33,804 nt of DNA from a virus. The stretch covers positions 1 to 33,804 of IMG/VR virus record IMGVR_UViG_3300007708_000002; one strand, given 5' to 3'. The notes under the pieces were generated by a model. It was not told where the DNA came from, ran no database searches, and saw only the letters and a program-made list of their open reading frames with translations. Of this stretch, positions 4,778-11,118 are shown one piece after another; position 1 is the first letter of the stretch; the number at the start of each line of letters is the position of its first letter. A program made the translations under genes and the position numbers.

Positions 4778-5051
4778 TACCACTCCCCATCTATTGACAA
4801 CACCGCATCCTAGCATGTGCGCCAAATACTAGATATTTTTTATGGGGTGGGCGAGATGTGGGGGTCACGCTCACACTGACCACGCGACCCACCCGGCGGG
4901 CCAGATCAGCTAGCCGGCTGCAGGCAACCTACCCTGCCCGTTTGCCCTGCCCGTCCAGGCGCGGCATGCAGGCGGCACAGCGCTGCTGCTGCTATTTATA
5001 TAGAGCACGCTGACCCATTGCCCCATCGAAGCCATGCGGGGACCCTAGCAG

Positions 5052-5074: not shown

Positions 5075-5117
5075 TGAGAGACCCGCTGAGACCTTAGCCC
5101 TTAAACGCTGAACATCA

Positions 5118-5188
5118 GTCTAGACATCTAACCCATAAACAGTCTAGGTGTCTAGCTGCCTAGGTTGAACCTAGATTGTCTATAGACA
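5118..5188. promoter_or_regulatory. Cluster of palindromes, putative operator region
   Basis: Three perfect palindromes lie within 71 bp: GTCTAGAC (5118-5125), CTAGGTT-G-AACCTAG (5160-5174) and TGTCTATAGACA (5177-5188). GTCTAG also recurs at about 5142, 5150 and 5270. This density is far above the rest of the genome and looks like binding sites for a dimeric regulator, about 70-140 bp upstream of the early promoter candidate. No obvious repressor gene is encoded, so the binding protein may be host-encoded or one of the unknown small phage proteins. Confidence 0.5.
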
Positions 5189-6822: not shown

Positions 6823-6990
6823 ATGACAGACACCAGCTCGCGCCTGGAAGACGATCTACAGCCCCTTCTCGCGGCCCTGGATGCCGGCCTGGCGATGCTG
6901 GCTGACCCTACTGCTACCCAGCTAGACGCAGAGCAGGTCAGTACCCTCTTTGAGTACGCTATCTCGCGCCTGAAGGGTGAAGTGCAGTGA
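6823..6990 (+). CDS. Small acidic helical protein (55 aa)
   Basis: Unrecognised. Acidic, Leu/Ala-rich and almost entirely helical (LEDDLQPLLAALDAGLAMLA, then VSTLFEYAISRLKGE), which suggests a helical hairpin or a small coiled-coil dimer. GGAGG about 8 nt upstream gives a strong ribosome site inside the end of the membrane-protein gene. It is the last gene of the first early block; the sigma70-type promoter for the RNA unit begins just after its stop codon. Confidence 0.6.
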   Translation: MTDTSSRLEDDLQPLLAALDAGLAMLADPTATQLDAEQVSTLFEYAISRLKGEVQ

Positions 6991-6994
6991 ACGC

Positions 6995-7023
6995 TTGACT
7001 CTATCTCGCGAATGTGCTAAAGT
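6995..7023 (+). promoter_or_regulatory. Sigma70-type promoter with extended -10
   Basis: TTGACT (5 of 6 to the -35 consensus), a 17-nt spacer, and TAAAGT (4 of 6 to the -10) preceded by TGC, which fits the extended -10 form TGn. Predicted start near 7030-7031. It lies just 4 nt after the 55-aa gene stop and points into a stretch with no convincing gene, ending about 100 nt later at a strong terminator. Confidence 0.6.
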
Positions 7024-7029
7024 CCCTCT

Positions 7030-7130
7030 TGTCGTGGTTGCGCACGGCTGAGAGGGTTCAAGATTCGGTACTAGGGAAGGTCAGTGATGATCTTGCGCAT
7101 CCCCTGGTACTGAACCTTGAACCCTTTTTG
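7030..7130 (+). ncRNA. Putative small RNA (about 100 nt) with long terminator stem
   Basis: The segment has its own promoter (6995-7023) and ends at an intrinsic terminator, and it holds no credible reading frame. The RNA would begin with a short free 5' part, which could form a small CGTG/CACG hairpin at about 7034-7047. A long stem with a loop of about 25-31 nt and a U-tract follow. TTGCGCA occurs both in the 5' part and in the big loop. No known RNA family is recognised. The alternative is a leader that controls the downstream alpha-CTD-like gene by termination and readthrough. Confidence 0.5.
7053..7130 (+). terminator. Strong intrinsic terminator (about 24-bp stem)
   Basis: Arms 7053-7073 and 7105-7125 pair at 20 of 21 positions: 18 Watson-Crick pairs, 2 G-U pairs and 1 A-C mismatch. 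Three more G-C pairs inside bring the stem to 24 positions. TTTTTGCTTT follows directly. The stem is unusually long for a bacterial terminator and could also be a double-strand-specific RNase (RNase III) substrate. It would separate the first early block from the genes downstream unless transcription reads through. Confidence 0.75.
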
Positions 7131-7177
7131 CTTTGTGCCACCTGACCGGGGCCATCACCCAGCCCTGAAGAACGTTG

Positions 7178-7285
7178 ATGCGACGGACTTCGATAAACGT
7201 GGTGAACCGGCCCTGTATCTCCTGCCACAAGCTCGGGATAGTGCAAACCGGGATGAAGGGAGAAGCAGTGCGAACCCCTCATTAG
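7178..7285 (+). CDS. Possible 35-aa CxxC mini-protein
   Basis: A short frame with a weak GAAG ribosome site 7 nt upstream. It carries one CxxC pair (RPCISCHK) as in zinc knuckles and is basic overall. A competing GTG frame (7135-7290) overlaps it, so coding here is doubtful. The stretch 7131-7391 otherwise contains only a branched inverted repeat. Confidence 0.2.
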   Translation: MRRTSINVVNRPCISCHKLGIVQTGMKGEAVRTPH

Positions 7286-7298
7286 CCTAGATAAACGA

Positions 7299-7338
7299 GA
7301 GCATCCATCCCAAAAGGATGAACCCAGCAGTGATGCTC
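7299..7338 (+). repeat. Branched inverted repeat upstream of the alpha-CTD-like gene
   Basis: Outer arms GAGCATC (7299-7305) and GATGCTC (7332-7338) enclose an inner hairpin CATCC-CAAAA-GGATG (7306-7320) and an 11-nt single-stranded segment. It ends 53 nt before the preferred start of the alpha-CTD-like gene and could be part of its 5' untranslated region. Confidence 0.4.
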
Positions 7339-7391
7339 GGGTGCTACGGATTGTGCGTTACACATGTGCTACCAACCTGGACAAACTGACC

Positions 7392-7775
7392 ATGACTGTT
7401 GAGAAGATCTACTTGTTTGAAGGAGAGGTCATAGATGGCAAGACCATCATTGACACCATGCAAGCCCTCATAGACGTGCAGCAGAAGCTGATAGCAGAGC
7501 TGGAAGCCCTACGGAAAGGATTACCTGTTAGATATAGGGATGAAGAGATTATCAATTCAAGTCTCAACATCTTACTCGCGGACTTCCGTAGTTGCCTTAC
7601 TAACAGATCTGACAACTGCCTCAAAAGCGCTTTTGATTGGGTTGAGAACCCTACTCTTAAAACGCTAATAGAGTTTGGAGAAAGTAATGTGAAAGCAATC
7701 AAAAACCTGGGACAGAAGAGCTTCAAAGAGATTACCGACGAACTACACGAACTAGGACTGTCATGGAAAAGCTAA
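7392..7775 (+). CDS. RNA polymerase alpha C-terminal-domain-like protein (127 aa)
   Basis: Residues about 65-127 resemble the DNA-binding C-terminal domain of bacterial RpoA. RSDNCLK (72-78) lines up with RSANCLK of E. coli alpha (265-271), and NLGQKSFKEI (105-114) with NLGKKSLTEI (294-303). All the main minor-groove and UP-element contacts are kept: Arg265, Asn268, Cys269, Gly296, Lys298, Ser299 and Glu302 match Arg72, Asn75, Cys76, Gly107, Lys109, Ser110 and Glu113. A 4-residue insertion lies between the two blocks. The first 60 residues are not alpha-like; they are helical (IIDTMQALIDVQQKLIAELEALRKG) and may dimerise. The ATG is preferred over the GTG at 7341 because it begins a regular fold, but its ribosome site is weak. 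It may act as an alpha-CTD mimic or a transcription factor. Confidence 0.75.
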   Translation: MTVEKIYLFEGEVIDGKTIIDTMQALIDVQQKLIAELEALRKGLPVRYRDEEIINSSLNILLADFRSCLTNRSDNCLKSAFDWVENPTLKTLIEFGESNVKAIKNLGQKSFKEITDELHELGLSWKS

Positions 7776-7924
7776 CATCACAAGAGATACAGTCTCTTAT
7801 CCTGAAGCTGGTGATGGAGCACAAGCACGGGAAAGACAACTGGAACACCGCGCTGGTACGCGCAGTAGAGCGGCATCACGGCATAGGCGTGAAAGTTAAG
7901 GAAGCTAAGGGGGTTGAGGCATGA
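7763..7924 (+). CDS. Small coupled protein (53 aa)
   Basis: Unrecognised. It overlaps the end of the alpha-CTD-like gene by 13 nt and its stop overlaps the next ATG (ATGA), so it is translated in a coupled chain. It has an N-terminal amphipathic helix (TSQEIQSLILKLVMEHKHGK) and a basic second half with several His. The tight link to the alpha-CTD-like gene makes a partner or accessory role possible, but no motif shows one. Confidence 0.55.
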   Translation: MEKLTSQEIQSLILKLVMEHKHGKDNWNTALVRAVERHHGIGVKVKEAKGVEA

Positions 7925-8142
7925 ACAATAGCAGGATAGTCAACGAGCTTATTGAGAAGGCCAATGAATGGAGTTATGAAGAGTACAACTACAAAAAAAA
8001 CGGGTACACGCGGGAGCAGTTGTACTCGCAAAAACTCGCCGAGTTGATTGTGTTGGAGTGCGCCCGAGTAGTAAAAGCAAGCAGCCCCCAAGGGATGATT
8101 GGGGTTAATGCAATTAGAATTCACTTTGGGATTGAGCCATGA
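7921..8142 (+). CDS. Small phage protein, paralogue A (73 aa)
   Basis: The C-terminal half (KLAELIVLECARVVKA...AIRIHFGIEP) belongs to a widespread type of small phage protein with the pattern 'LIV-E/K-C...V...HFG(I/V)'. The function is unknown to me. The next gene carries the same pattern, so the two are tandem paralogues. The N-terminal part is polar and aromatic (EWSYEEYNYKKNGY). Start and stop overlap both neighbours by ATGA, the densest coupling in the early operon. Confidence 0.6.
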   Translation: MNNSRIVNELIEKANEWSYEEYNYKKNGYTREQLYSQKLAELIVLECARVVKASSPQGMIGVNAIRIHFGIEP

Positions 8143-8399
8143 ACCCAATAATCAAAGCGCTAGCCGAGCAAGCTGGCATGAACATTAAAACGAACATAAG
8201 CGGCGTGCCGCTGGTCTTTGGCACGTTTGAGGGATACAAGACCTCGCATATTACTGTCGAGGAGTTAGAGAAGTTTGCTAATCTCATCGTGCTGAAGTGC
8301 GTCCAAATAGTTGAAAACGAAGCGGCTCAATACGCTGCCCCAGTTTGGGCGGTTGAGCTAATAAATGACATGCACGAACATTTTGGAGTAACAGAATGA
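8139..8399 (+). CDS. Small phage protein, paralogue B (86 aa)
   Basis: Tandem paralogue of the preceding gene: KFANLIVLKCVQIVEN...MHEHFGVTE matches KLAELIVLECARVVKA...RIHFGIEP. The N-terminal part differs and looks beta-rich (SGVPLVFGTFEGYKTSHITVEELEKF split). It is probably an acidic alpha/beta protein in the cytosol. Such pairs often arise by duplication followed by divergence of the N-terminal partner-binding part; that is inference. ATGA overlaps join it to both sides. Confidence 0.6.
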   Translation: MNPIIKALAEQAGMNIKTNISGVPLVFGTFEGYKTSHITVEELEKFANLIVLKCVQIVENEAAQYAAPVWAVELINDMHEHFGVTE

Positions 8400-8425
8400 A
8401 CCCCTGGTCAATTGAGTTTGGATAG
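8396..8425 (+). CDS. Mini-frame of 9 codons at ATGA overlap (leader or gene remnant)
   Basis: The next ATG of the coupled chain (ATGA with the preceding stop) opens a frame of only 9 codons (MNPWSIEFG). It could be the remnant of a third paralogue cut by a stop codon, or a reinitiation spacer. MNP is also how paralogue B begins. There is little evidence that the peptide itself matters. Confidence 0.2.
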   Translation: MNPWSIEFG

Positions 8426-8434
8426 GGTGGTGAA

Positions 8435-8479
8435 ATGACTGACGTTCTTATTGTGAATTATGGAGAAACCATAAAGTGA
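8435..8479 (+). CDS. Possible 14-aa leader peptide
   Basis: MTDVLIVNYGETIK, with GGTGG 5 nt upstream of the ATG. Its stop overlaps the GTG start of the next gene (GTGA), so translating it would carry ribosomes onto that gene. It is too short to judge as a functional peptide. Confidence 0.25.
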   Translation: MTDVLIVNYGETIK

Positions 8480-8694
8480 ACAAGCCAGACGCTTACCGCA
8501 TCCTTGACCTGGCACTGTCAGGGGCACCACTGCCGCAGGAGGTCATCCTCGCAGCCCTGTACGTCACAGGAGACGCTCCACTGCTGCCCTGGAAGGACTG
8601 GAGGGACGCTGAGGAGTTCGCAGCCGCACTGCTGGCAGACGTAGAAAAGCCCCCCAACCCGGCAAGGCTAGGGGGCAAAGGAGACTATCAATGA
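8476..8694 (+). CDS. Small early protein with GTG start (72 aa)
   Basis: Unrecognised. It is acidic, Ala/Leu/Pro-rich and helical (YRILDLALSGAPLPQEVILA, then DAEEFAAALLADVE), with a Pro/Gly-rich basic end. GGAGA lies about 9 nt before the GTG, and the start overlaps the stop of a 14-codon frame (GTGA). Its own stop overlaps the following ATG (ATGA). High GC codon use sets it apart from the two AT-richer paralogues just upstream, so it may have joined the operon separately. Confidence 0.5.
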   Translation: MNKPDAYRILDLALSGAPLPQEVILAALYVTGDAPLLPWKDWRDAEEFAAALLADVEKPPNPARLGGKGDYQ

Positions 8695-8759
8695 CCAACA
8701 TGCAAAAGACTAGTTTGCCCAACAATGGTAGCACAACAACACTAGAGAGGTACACCTAA
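8691..8759 (+). CDS. Possible 22-aa peptide at ATGA overlap
   Basis: This short frame continues the ATGA coupling chain. It is rich in Thr, Asn and Ser, with no motif. The 67 nt that follow, up to the next gene, hold no feature except the ribosome site shared with the RecT-like gene. It is either a tiny gene or a fortuitous frame. Confidence 0.25.
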   Translation: MTNMQKTSLPNNGSTTTLERYT

Positions 8760-8826
8760 AAAAGATCACTACATCATCAGATCACCGTAGTAGCATTGCA
8801 TTTCCAACAACACAAGTGAGGTTCAC

Positions 8827-9111
8827 ATGTCTGAAGTTAGTAACAAGTTCTGTATCAACTGCGTCCACTATGTTCGGGATCAGATCACGTCCGACATGCA
8901 TGTCGACAAGTGCAGTCACCCCAAAGTGGTGACGGTAAACATGGTCACCGGCAAGGCCAACCTCGGTGATGCGTTCACCCAGCGCCTGGACTATGCCGGT
9001 GCTTGCAAGCAGGGAGGATTCCTCTTCAGCCCTCTGCAGCCCGTGGACTACGACCCCGGCGAACCTTCCACAGTCTGGCCCGACGATCATCAGGAGGCAC
9101 GCAATGTCTGA
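8827..9111 (+). CDS. Small cysteine-rich phage protein preceding the exonuclease (94 aa)
   Basis: Cys9, Cys12, Cys29 and Cys60 (FCINCVHY...DKCSHP...GACKQGG) could bind one zinc ion. The later part is Pro/Asp-rich (YDPGEPSTVWPDDHQE) and probably extended. Proteins of this type, with a 'CxxC.hy' start, are common small phage proteins of unknown function near recombination genes. Its last 8 nt overlap the start of the exonuclease, giving translational coupling. The 16 bases ending in its ATG are identical to those before the RecT-like gene. Confidence 0.6.
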   Translation: MSEVSNKFCINCVHYVRDQITSDMHVDKCSHPKVVTVNMVTGKANLGDAFTQRLDYAGACKQGGFLFSPLQPVDYDPGEPSTVWPDDHQEARNV

Positions 9112-9997
9112 TTTCTCACCCGCAGTACGTGACAGTGCTTGGTGGTCAGGCGACAGCCGCCTGGCAGCGCAGGGCAGGGCCAACGAGGCCATCCTCATCA
9201 AGCAGGGCAAGATGGATAGGCCAGACCTGTCCAACGTCGAGGCCGTCCAGATGGGCCATGTGATGGAGCCAGTCATAGGCAGACTGGCTCAGGAGCGGTT
9301 AGGCATTGAGCTGACCAAGATAGAAGAGGCAATGGCTCATCCAAAAGAGTCTTGGCTCAAAAGCCACTTTGACTTTGCAGGAGTGCAAGATGGGAAGAAG
9401 ATCTTGGTCGAGGCTAAGAATTACCGCGCTGCTTCGTATCAGGATTTTGATGCTGAGTCTGGAATTGTTCCTGCTGCTGACTTGGCTCAATGCGTCCATG
9501 AAGCCACAGTCTTCGATTGCGAGACGGTGTATCTTGCCGTGCTTTTCGGGGGCAATGCGTTTGAGTGCATTCGCCTCGACATTTCGCCGCAGCAAAAGCT
9601 CGAACACATTAAGCAGATGGCAGTCTACTGGGGGCACGTTGTCACAAACACAGTCGGCCCAGCAGAAACCACCGCACAGGCCAGGTTGATCTACTCTGAC
9701 AACGCTAGCGTGAAACAGGCCACTAGCTGGGCAGAACAAGCCTGCATAGACCTAGCCTACACAAAGGCCAGTATCAAGTCCCTGGAGGCTCAGGAAGAGG
9801 CTTTGTCAGTGCAGTTGCAGCGTTACCTACAGCAGTCCTCAACGCTGCTCTCTGTCGACGGCAAAGTGTTGGCAACGTGGAAGCAGGCCAAGTCCAGCAA
9901 GCGGTTCTCTGCTGGTCTCTTCGAGCAAGCCATGCCCGACATCTACAAGCAGTTCGTTGTCGATCAACCAGGCTCACGCCGCTTCCTAATTAAGTGA
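9104..9997 (+). CDS. YqaJ-type recombination exonuclease (297 aa)
   Basis: A PD-(D/E)XK nuclease of the lambda-exonuclease/YqaJ group, which resects double-stranded ends to give single strands for annealing. Visible motifs, in order: the N-terminal substrate helix SAWWSGDSRL, GHVMEP with Glu55, Asp90 in SHFDF, the core VEAKN with Glu103 and Lys105, and Gln129-x-x-His132 in AQCVHEA. The C-terminal half is a helical extension (about 190-297). The ATG at 9104 is chosen because GGAGG lies 7 nt upstream; the frame stays open further upstream but that part overlaps the Cys-rich gene. With the RecT-like and SSB-like genes it forms a two-step annealing recombination module. Confidence 0.85.
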   Translation: MSDFSPAVRDSAWWSGDSRLAAQGRANEAILIKQGKMDRPDLSNVEAVQMGHVMEPVIGRLAQERLGIELTKIEEAMAHPKESWLKSHFDFAGVQDGKKILVEAKNYRAASYQDFDAESGIVPAADLAQCVHEATVFDCETVYLAVLFGGNAFECIRLDISPQQKLEHIKQMAVYWGHVVTNTVGPAETTAQARLIYSDNASVKQATSWAEQACIDLAYTKASIKSLEAQEEALSVQLQRYLQQSSTLLSVDGKVLATWKQAKSSKRFSAGLFEQAMPDIYKQFVVDQPGSRRFLIK

Positions 9998-10004
9998 GGT
10001 TCAC

Positions 10005-10730
10005 ATGAGCAACATAGCATTGATACCGGTCAGCGACATCGAGAAGATGGCGACAGTGATGGCAAAGAGTGGCCTGTTTGGGATGAAGACTCCTGACCAA
10101 GCCTTCGCTCTCATGCTGCTGTGCCAGGGTGAAGGCATCCACCCAGCGATCGCTGTACGTGATTTCCACATTATTCAGGGCAGACCTACCCTCAAAGCAG
10201 ACGCGATGATGGCAAGGTTTCAGCAAGCAGGGGGCAAGGTCGAGTGGAATGTCTACACAGATCAAGAGGTCACAGGCACGTTCTCACATCCGGCTGGTGG
10301 ATCTCTGAAGCTGACATGGACGTTCGCCCAGGCCAAGTCGATAGGACTTACAGGCAAAGACAACTGGCGCAACTACCCTCGGGCAATGCTGAGAGCACGG
10401 TGCATCTCAGAAGGGATCAGAACCGTGTTTCCAGGCTGCGTAGTGGGTACGTACACACCTGAGGAGGTAGAAGACTTTACAGCCCCTCCTAAGCCCGTTG
10501 TTGAGATGGTGGAGGTTGTGGAGGACAAGCCCTTCCCTCTCTACATACCCGGCACTCGTGAGCCTTACAAGTCTTACGACACGCTCGATGACTGGCGGCT
10601 GGGGTTCAACGCTATGAAGACCCGCATCGCTGCTTCTACCAAGTTCAGTGATGAAGACAAAGCTCTGAAGATAGCGGATCTGGAGCGTGCAAACACTGAT
10701 CTTCTAGACTCCGGTGAAGTCATTAGCTGA
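10005..10730 (+). CDS. RecT-like single-strand annealing protein (241 aa)
   Basis: It resembles the RecT-type annealing proteins of proteobacterial phages: an N-terminal helical region (DIEKMATVMAKSGLFGMKTP), the segment ALMLLCQGEGIHPAIAVRDF, then IIQGRPTLKADAMMARFQQAGGKVEW, and a later RNYPRAMLRARCISEGIR helix with basic residues fit for DNA binding. The C-terminal 80 residues are acidic and less conserved. Such proteins coat the single strand produced by the partner exonuclease, which is the gene just upstream, and anneal it to homologous DNA. GAGG at good distance precedes the ATG. Confidence 0.78.
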   Translation: MSNIALIPVSDIEKMATVMAKSGLFGMKTPDQAFALMLLCQGEGIHPAIAVRDFHIIQGRPTLKADAMMARFQQAGGKVEWNVYTDQEVTGTFSHPAGGSLKLTWTFAQAKSIGLTGKDNWRNYPRAMLRARCISEGIRTVFPGCVVGTYTPEEVEDFTAPPKPVVEMVEVVEDKPFPLYIPGTREPYKSYDTLDDWRLGFNAMKTRIAASTKFSDEDKALKIADLERANTDLLDSGEVIS

Positions 10731-10734
10731 AATT

Positions 10735-10753
10735 CTTCCCGCCAACAGGGAAG
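10735..10753 (+). repeat. Short hairpin after the RecT-like gene
   Basis: CTTCCC (10735-10740), a 7-nt loop and GGGAAG (10748-10753) form a perfect 6-bp stem 4 nt after the RecT-like stop. No T-run follows. Its presence supports the view that 10731-10803 is an intercistronic gap and that the next gene begins at the downstream GTG. Confidence 0.4.
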
Positions 10754-10803
10754 CACTCCAACGCCTGGTAGCAAGACTGTCAGGCTCTTACAGGAAACAC
10801 AAA

Positions 10804-11118
10804 GTGAGTACGAACAACGCACACAAAGAGATGCCTGGCAGTGGCGTAGCCTACTGGGAGGATGAGAAGAAGTCAGAGAAGGGGCCAGACTACAAAGGAT
10901 TCGTAGTGCTGGAGATGGACTACAAGGCTGGGGAGAAGCTCAAGATGGCTTTCTGGCAGCGTAGTACAGCACGCGGCACCACCCTCCTTGCCATCAAGGA
11001 AGACAACTGGCTGAAGAGGAAGAAGCTGGAAGAGAACGCTCCTACTGAAGTGGAGCCAGCCTACCGCAGGGCTGTCCCTCCTAAGCGCCAGACTGATGAT
11101 GATGACGTACCTTTTTGA
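10804..11118 (+). CDS. SSB-like protein with acidic DDDDVPF tip (104 aa)
   Basis: The last seven residues, DDDDVPF, match the acidic C-terminal tip (DDDIPF type) by which bacterial SSB recruits recombination and repair proteins. The body (about 10-75) is beta-rich, with a start PGSGVAYWEDEKKSEKGPDYKGFV, aromatic residues and a middle MAFWQRSTARGTTLLAI that fits a small OB-like barrel. A basic, Pro-rich linker follows (AYRRAVPPKRQT). It comes right after the exonuclease and RecT-like genes, as phage SSBs often do. The GTG is preferred because AGGAA lies 8-10 nt upstream; a longer GTG start at 10714 would add 30 residues and overlap RecT. The fold assignment is inference. Confidence 0.6.
   Translation: MSTNNAHKEMPGSGVAYWEDEKKSEKGPDYKGFVVLEMDYKAGEKLKMAFWQRSTARGTTLLAIKEDNWLKRKKLEENAPTEVEPAYRRAVPPKRQTDDDDVPF

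What the first reader, a model, noticed from the sequence alone, without database searches (positions are those of the whole stretch)
7392..7775. Phage-encoded stand-alone alpha-CTD-like protein retaining all main DNA contacts
Seen: RSDNCLK and NLGQKSFKEI match the two DNA-binding blocks of the RNA polymerase alpha C-terminal domain, including the equivalents of Arg265, Asn268, Cys269, Gly296, Lys298, Ser299 and Glu302. The N-terminal 60 residues are unrelated to alpha and look like a helical dimerisation part. Known: these residues bind the minor groove of UP elements and activators contact this domain. Inference: the protein could compete with or supplement host alpha-CTD at promoters, steer polymerase to phage A-tracts (such as 4833-4843 upstream of the late operon), or act as the missing late activator. 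No phage polymerase or classical late regulator is encoded.
Basis: partly seen in the sequence, partly recalled or inferred. Interest (0 to 1): 0.86.

Follow-up and report, generated by a model that had tools for sequence, protein, structure and literature searches.

The report
Phage stand-alone alpha-CTD-like DNA-binding protein
A freshwater phage carries a small protein that copies the DNA-gripping end domain of bacterial RNA polymerase's alpha subunit; the likeness is real, but such proteins already occur, unstudied, in many phages, and this one is an optional extra rather than the phage's missing late-gene switch.

Summary
The 127-aa ORF at 7392-7775 (+) carries a genuine RNA polymerase alpha C-terminal domain (Pfam PF03118, E 3.9e-8, above the curated cut-off). 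AlphaFold gives the alpha-CTD fold (pLDDT about 97 over residues 61-120; 1.6-1.7 A from the B. subtilis and E. coli domains). All seven DNA-contact equivalents named are present, behind a separate N-terminal helix.

It is not unique. One pattern scan of viral contigs found 52 loci with alpha-CTD-like domains, without the alpha N-terminal domain. UniProt already names similar 128-135-aa phage proteins, and cultured Microbacterium and Bacillus phages carry relatives.

The "missing late activator" reading is not supported. None of 21 related phages holding both terminase and RecE carries the gene. The A-tract cited belongs to a late promoter conserved in 22 relatives, 16 of them tested and lacking it. 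The sigma-contacting acidic pair and C-terminal tail of E. coli alpha are also absent.

Best reading: an accessory early-operon A/T-rich minor-groove binder, probably a competitor or modulator of transcription; function is untested.

In passing, a conserved pseudoknotted RNA with covarying loops lies just upstream (window plus 23 relatives), followed in five relatives by Rfam Betaproteobacteria-1 RNA.

The parts
7392..7775 (+). 127-aa ORF, alpha-CTD-like protein (ATG 7392; in-frame GTG 7341 is an alternative start)
   Evidence: Pfam PF03118 E 3.9e-8; AlphaFold and Foldseek
7437..7514 (+). N-terminal helix (residues 16-41), possible dimerisation helix
   Evidence: AlphaFold pLDDT about 90; dimerisation inferred only
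7596..7751 (+). alpha-CTD-like domain, Pfam-matched part (residues 69-120)
   Evidence: AlphaFold pLDDT about 97
7605..7625 (+). RSDNCLK block: equivalents of R265, N268, C269
7704..7733 (+). NLGQKSFKEI block: equivalents of G296, K298, S299, E302
7763..8399 (+). three small ORFs (7763-7921, 7921-8142, 8139-8399) whose starts overlap the preceding stop: probable operon with the alpha-CTD-like gene
   Evidence: sequence; no Pfam match; the last two also without PHROGs match
6995..7023 (+). sigma70-like promoter TTGACT-17-TAAAGT with TG before the -10, upstream of the structured RNA
   Evidence: same place is TTGACA/TATAAT-like in most relatives

Best explanation
The protein is a small accessory DNA-binding protein built from a captured RNA polymerase alpha C-terminal domain behind a short N-terminal helical segment. 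Made from the early operon, it would bind A/T-rich minor grooves with the conserved surface (R72, N75, C76, G107, K109, S110, E113), probably with avidity from self-association through helix 16-41, and so occupy or compete for UP-element-like and A-tract DNA, modulating host and/or phage transcription. It is not part of RNA polymerase (no alpha N-terminal domain) and does not look like a sigma-contacting recruiter. Shown: homology, predicted fold, contact residues, absence from relatives. Inferred: DNA binding, dimerisation, effect on transcription.
For: PF03118 above cut-off; fold with pLDDT about 97 over residues 61-120 and Foldseek to alpha-CTD, including DNA-bound forms 1lb2 and 9zum; seven of seven contact residues, with R265/N268/C269 equivalents also kept in most phage relatives although the scan pattern did not select for them; sigma-contact pair lost (R66, C68) and C-terminal tail absent; accessory distribution, 0 of 21 syntenic relatives; lower GC than the genome (0.43 against 0.51); place in the early operon with overlapping starts.
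Against: No DNA-binding data. Isolated alpha-CTD binds DNA weakly (own knowledge), so function depends on the untested dimerisation. The domain is a helix-hairpin-helix fold, and such folds also serve replication and repair; the nearest functional neighbours, RecE, RecT and SSB-like (9107-11118), fit a recombination role as well. The model is a monomer prediction from 21 sequences, with weak support for residues 1-10 and 41-50.
Confidence: 0.5

Rival explanations
1. It recruits or steers host RNA polymerase to phage promoters (alpha-CTD surrogate or late activator), for example at the A-tract of the late promoter at 4833-4843.
For: DNA-contact surface intact. The A-tract lies about 20 bases upstream of an extended -10-like TGCTAGGAT, near the position of a proximal UP subsite (subsite position from own knowledge).
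Against: The same promoter (G/C box plus A-tract) is conserved in 22 relatives, and the 16 of these searched with PF03118 lack the domain; 0 of 21 relatives with TerL and RecE carry the gene; acidic sigma-contact pair and tail absent.
Confidence: 0.13
2. It is a decoy or host-takeover protein that binds host transcription activators or regulators which normally touch alpha-CTD, taking them away from RNA polymerase.
For: Alpha-CTD is a docking surface for many activators (own knowledge; Foldseek finds activator- and Spx-bound forms). The Goe8 relative lies close to the genome end among small hypothetical genes.
Against: The 287-type surface is only partly kept (E97 present; neighbours G96, S98, N99; the R317 region is missing), and DNA-contact residues would not need to be conserved for this role.
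Confidence: 0.15
3. It is a helix-hairpin-helix DNA-binding protein used in phage recombination, replication or DNA protection, not in transcription.
For: Upstream of RecE, RecT and an SSB-like gene in the same direction; HHH_5 is matched weakly by some phage relatives.
Against: P0001 matches alpha-CTD models specifically, with no HHH_5 match up to E 1; several phage relatives join the domain to sigma region 4, which points to transcription.
Confidence: 0.17
4. A passenger gene without function for the phage.
For: Found in none of 21 syntenic relatives; lower GC.
Against: Intact reading frame, all contact residues kept on a long branch, operon-like overlaps.
Confidence: 0.05

Closest known systems
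RNA polymerase alpha subunit C-terminal domain (Pfam PF03118; structures 1z3e, 1lb2)
   Same: Fold (TMt 0.87-0.88, 1.6-1.7 A), both DNA-binding blocks, all seven contact residues
   Different: No alpha N-terminal domain; four-residue insertion after helix 1 of the domain; D259/E261 equivalents are R/C; ends near residue 316
'RNA polymerase, alpha subunit, C-terminal' proteins of uncultured Caudovirales phages (e.g. A0A6J5MNY7, A0A6J5L490, A0A6J5M7I6 in BFVD)
   Same: Stand-alone, 128-135 aa, alpha-CTD fold, phage-encoded
   Different: About 24-26% identity; neighbours and function unknown
Microbacterium phage Morrill gp24 ('DNA binding protein') and Bacillus phage vB_BmeM-Goe8 c00050 ('RNA polymerase subunit alpha', 210 aa)
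   Same: Alpha-CTD-like domain in a phage protein too short to be a complete alpha subunit
   Different: Found with the relative in L109, not with P0001 itself; unrelated genomes; N-terminal parts not compared
Phage alpha-CTD-like proteins of viral contigs, stand-alone (L009, L012, L109, L123) or fused to sigma region 4 (L008, L013, L129, L135, L138, L153)
   Same: PF03118 domain with R/N/C and GKS-E residues
   Different: Fusions carry sigma region 4 and in some an HTH; P0001 does not. In a low-resolution tree P0001 groups with cellular rpoA, not with these

Membership tests
RNA_pol_A_CTD domain (PF03118) | Score above the curated cut-off | tested here: met
   33.3 bits against 23.8
RNA_pol_A_CTD domain (PF03118) | Alpha-CTD fold | tested here: met
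   AlphaFold pLDDT about 97 over residues 61-120; Foldseek TMt 0.87-0.88
RNA_pol_A_CTD domain (PF03118) | 265-determinant residues for minor-groove contact | tested here: met
   R72, N75, C76, G107, K109, S110, E113
RNA_pol_A_CTD domain (PF03118) | Binds UP-element DNA | not testable with these tools
   needs protein
RNA polymerase alpha subunit (RpoA) | N-terminal domain for assembly with beta and beta' | tested here: not met
   127 aa; rpoA models match only C-terminal parts (from residue 21 at the earliest, mostly 42-69 onwards) and far below their cut-offs
RNA polymerase alpha subunit (RpoA) | Sigma contact by D259 and E261 | tested here: not met
   R66 and C68 at these places; both acidic in only 11 of 42 phage relatives
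Late activator of this phage group | Present in relatives that share the late promoter | tested here: not met
   promoter box in 22 relatives; PF03118 in none of 39 viral contigs searched, 16 of them with the box, nor in MW202753 and MW202825
Phage stand-alone alpha-CTD-like proteins (uncharacterised class) | Alpha-CTD domain on a short unrelated N-terminal part, in a phage genome | tested here: met

The most novel reading that the evidence does not exclude
Alpha-CTD-like proteins, alone or joined to sigma region 4, are a broad and repeatedly acquired class of phage transcription modulators that read UP-element DNA independently of the alpha subunit; the window protein is a member that kept DNA binding and gave up sigma contact, and so works as an UP-element competitor.
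Probability: 0.25. Interest if true: 0.65.

Novelty: new member of a known kind. Interest (0 to 1): 0.38.

Why it matters
If it binds UP elements, it shows a simple way for a phage to tune host RNA polymerase without its own polymerase or sigma factor, and the R72/K109 positions make the idea directly testable. The class is common in viral contigs and partly annotated, but no functional study was found in the open-access literature searched here.

Tried and rejected
Close homologues of P0001 in viral contigs (none) and in bacterial and archaeal genomes (one, a cellular rpoA of a Mollicutes MAG). Most tblastn hits in the phage and plasmid collections were, or looked like, complete rpoA genes or host DNA (checked); only L004 was a phage fusion protein. 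PHROGs gave no family for P0001. DNA similarity of 6900-8800 to phage records: none. A domain tree (56 columns) is too short to settle origin; P0001 sits on a long branch beside cellular rpoA, and the nearest one was itself picked with a P0001 pattern. The G296/K298/S299/E302 conservation among viral relatives was not used as evidence because the scan pattern required it. Sigma70 region 1.2 was not found in the window or relatives. MAFFT misaligned the diverged RNA copies, so the loop-pairing test was done per sequence instead.

Full report
What is there. The frame at 7392-7775 (+) gives a 127-residue protein. Pfam RNA_pol_A_CTD matches residues 69-120 with E 3.9e-8, above the curated cut-off. 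NCBIfam rpoA models match its C-terminal half, the best two from residues 42 and 52, and the best solved relatives by sequence are mycobacterial and Francisella alpha. An AlphaFold model from an alignment of window and viral-contig sequences has pLDDT about 97 over residues 61-120; Foldseek places it on alpha-CTD of B. subtilis (1z3e, TMt 0.88, 1.7 A) and E. coli (1lb2, TMt 0.87, 1.6 A). Arg72, Asn75, Cys76, Gly107, Lys109, Ser110 and Glu113 occupy the places of R265, N268, C269, G296, K298, S299 and E302.

What differs from alpha. There is no N-terminal assembly domain; instead a confident helix 16-41 precedes the domain. The domain has four extra residues between its first two helices and stops near E. 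coli residue 316. The acidic pair D259/E261, which touches sigma in E. coli (own knowledge), is R66/C68 by ungapped count from R72; an alignment that places a two-residue insertion there changes the exact residues, but E261 is not kept in either case.

How common it is. A scan of viral contigs with a single pattern derived from a small alignment returned 52 loci (9 in the first scan). The reading frames are not RpoA: they are short proteins with varied N-terminal parts, or fusions in which Pfam sees sigma-70 region 4 (L008, L013, L129, L135, L138, L153) or an acetyltransferase (L118). Among 46 of them the R265 equivalent is Arg in 41 of 42 aligned, and N268 and C269 are kept in 38 of 44; the other positions were required by the search and prove nothing. 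BFVD already holds 128-135-residue proteins of uncultured Caudovirales phages named 'RNA polymerase, alpha subunit, C-terminal', and similar annotations for Rhodococcus phage Finch and Mycobacterium phage Mithril. Cultured Microbacterium phage Morrill (gp24) and Bacillus phage Goe8 (c00050) carry the domain too. The kind is thus known to annotation; no functional paper was found.

Is it the late activator? The phage belongs to a large, apparently freshwater group: its terminase has at least 599 relatives in viral contigs, of which the best 80 were kept, and two GenBank relatives from Manatee Spring. PF03118 was searched in 39 of the viral-contig records and in both GenBank genomes, without a match. 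Twenty-one of these hold both terminase and RecE, so the intervening region is largely present; all 21 lack the gene. The A-tract at 4833-4843 lies in a conserved late-strand element, GTGACCCCCAC(N5-7)CCCACCCC followed by an A-run and, in the window and many relatives, by TGnTAnnAT about 20 bases on; it is present in 22 relatives, of which 16 were in the PF03118 search (one further regex match, in L018, lacks the A-run). This promoter is kept in phages without the alpha-CTD-like gene, so the gene is unlikely to be its general activator. More distant relatives were not examined.

Surroundings. The gene starts a run of four ORFs with overlapping stop and start codons (7392-8399) in a variable part of the early region between an ArdC-type anti-restriction gene and RecE/RecT/SSB-like genes. 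Its GC is 0.43 against 0.51 for the window. In a tree of 56 columns it groups with cellular rpoA of a Mollicutes MAG and Tsukamurella rather than with other phage copies, which hints at a separate acquisition but is weak evidence. Adjacent RNA in relatives matches Betaproteobacteria-1 RNA, which hints at a betaproteobacterial host, whose own alpha would not be the obvious source; this is inference.

Mechanism. Retained DNA contacts, lost sigma contacts, no assembly domain and an extra helix fit best with a protein that binds A/T-rich minor grooves on its own and competes with or modulates alpha-CTD-dependent transcription. DNA binding, dimerisation and effect are inferred. Rivals are recruitment, decoy for activators, and a recombination role.

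In passing. Upstream, 7031-7131 (+) folds into two hairpins (z -8.2 for 7024-7145) behind a sigma70-like promoter. The same arrangement occurs in 23 relatives found with a covariance model (the window copy is too diverged for the model and was recognised by position and architecture). In every one the first hairpin's loop is complementary over 6-9 bases to a segment of the second; 15 different pairings occur, self-matches average 7.5 bases against 4.3 between different phages, and 0 of 20000 permutations reach the observed sum. In five relatives Rfam RF02932 Betaproteobacteria-1 RNA follows directly. This RNA is shared by the group, unlike the alpha-CTD-like gene, and may be the more general finding.

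Noticed in passing
window 7031-7131 + (promoter 6995-7023); L020, L021, L024, L025, L031, L035, L040, L042, L043, L045, L046, L048, L059, L064, L067, L074, L077, L080, L081, L084, L085, L086, L092: Conserved structured RNA with its own sigma70-like promoter and terminator: loop of hairpin 1 pairs with a segment of hairpin 2; 15 different covarying pairings in 24 phages, 0 of 20000 permutations as good. No Rfam match at this place in the window or the relatives scanned.
   Followed up: partly
window 7147-7310 +; L020 4919-5036, L021 989-1107, L031 1062-1180, L043 4157-4274, L080 3442-3558 (- strand): A second conserved element follows that RNA; in five relatives it is Rfam RF02932 Betaproteobacteria-1 RNA (83-92 bits). 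The window version (78 bases at 75-77% identity to L035, L042, L084-L086) is not recognised by Rfam.
   Followed up: partly
window 4795-4880 - strand; L020, L021, L022, L024, L025, L027, L038, L043, L045 and others: Conserved late promoter: G/C box GTGACCCCCAC..CCCACCCC, then an A-tract, then in many copies an extended -10-like TGnTAnnAT. The G/C box may be the site of an unknown activator.
   Followed up: partly
L008, L013, L129, L135, L138, L153 (viral contigs), L004 (MT835636): Phage proteins joining sigma-70 region 4 (and in some an HTH) to an alpha-CTD-like domain in one chain (L004 by sequence).
   Followed up: partly
L118 5248-6270: Viral-contig protein with a GNAT acetyltransferase domain followed by an alpha-CTD-like domain.
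   Followed up: no
window 5116-5183: Cluster of CTAG-containing direct and inverted repeats in the intergenic control region, possibly operator or origin sites.
   Followed up: no
window 7921-8142 and 8139-8399: Two adjacent small ORFs that look like paralogues (KLAELIVLECARVV..HFGIEP / KFANLIVLKCVQIV..HFGVTE), without family match.
   Followed up: no
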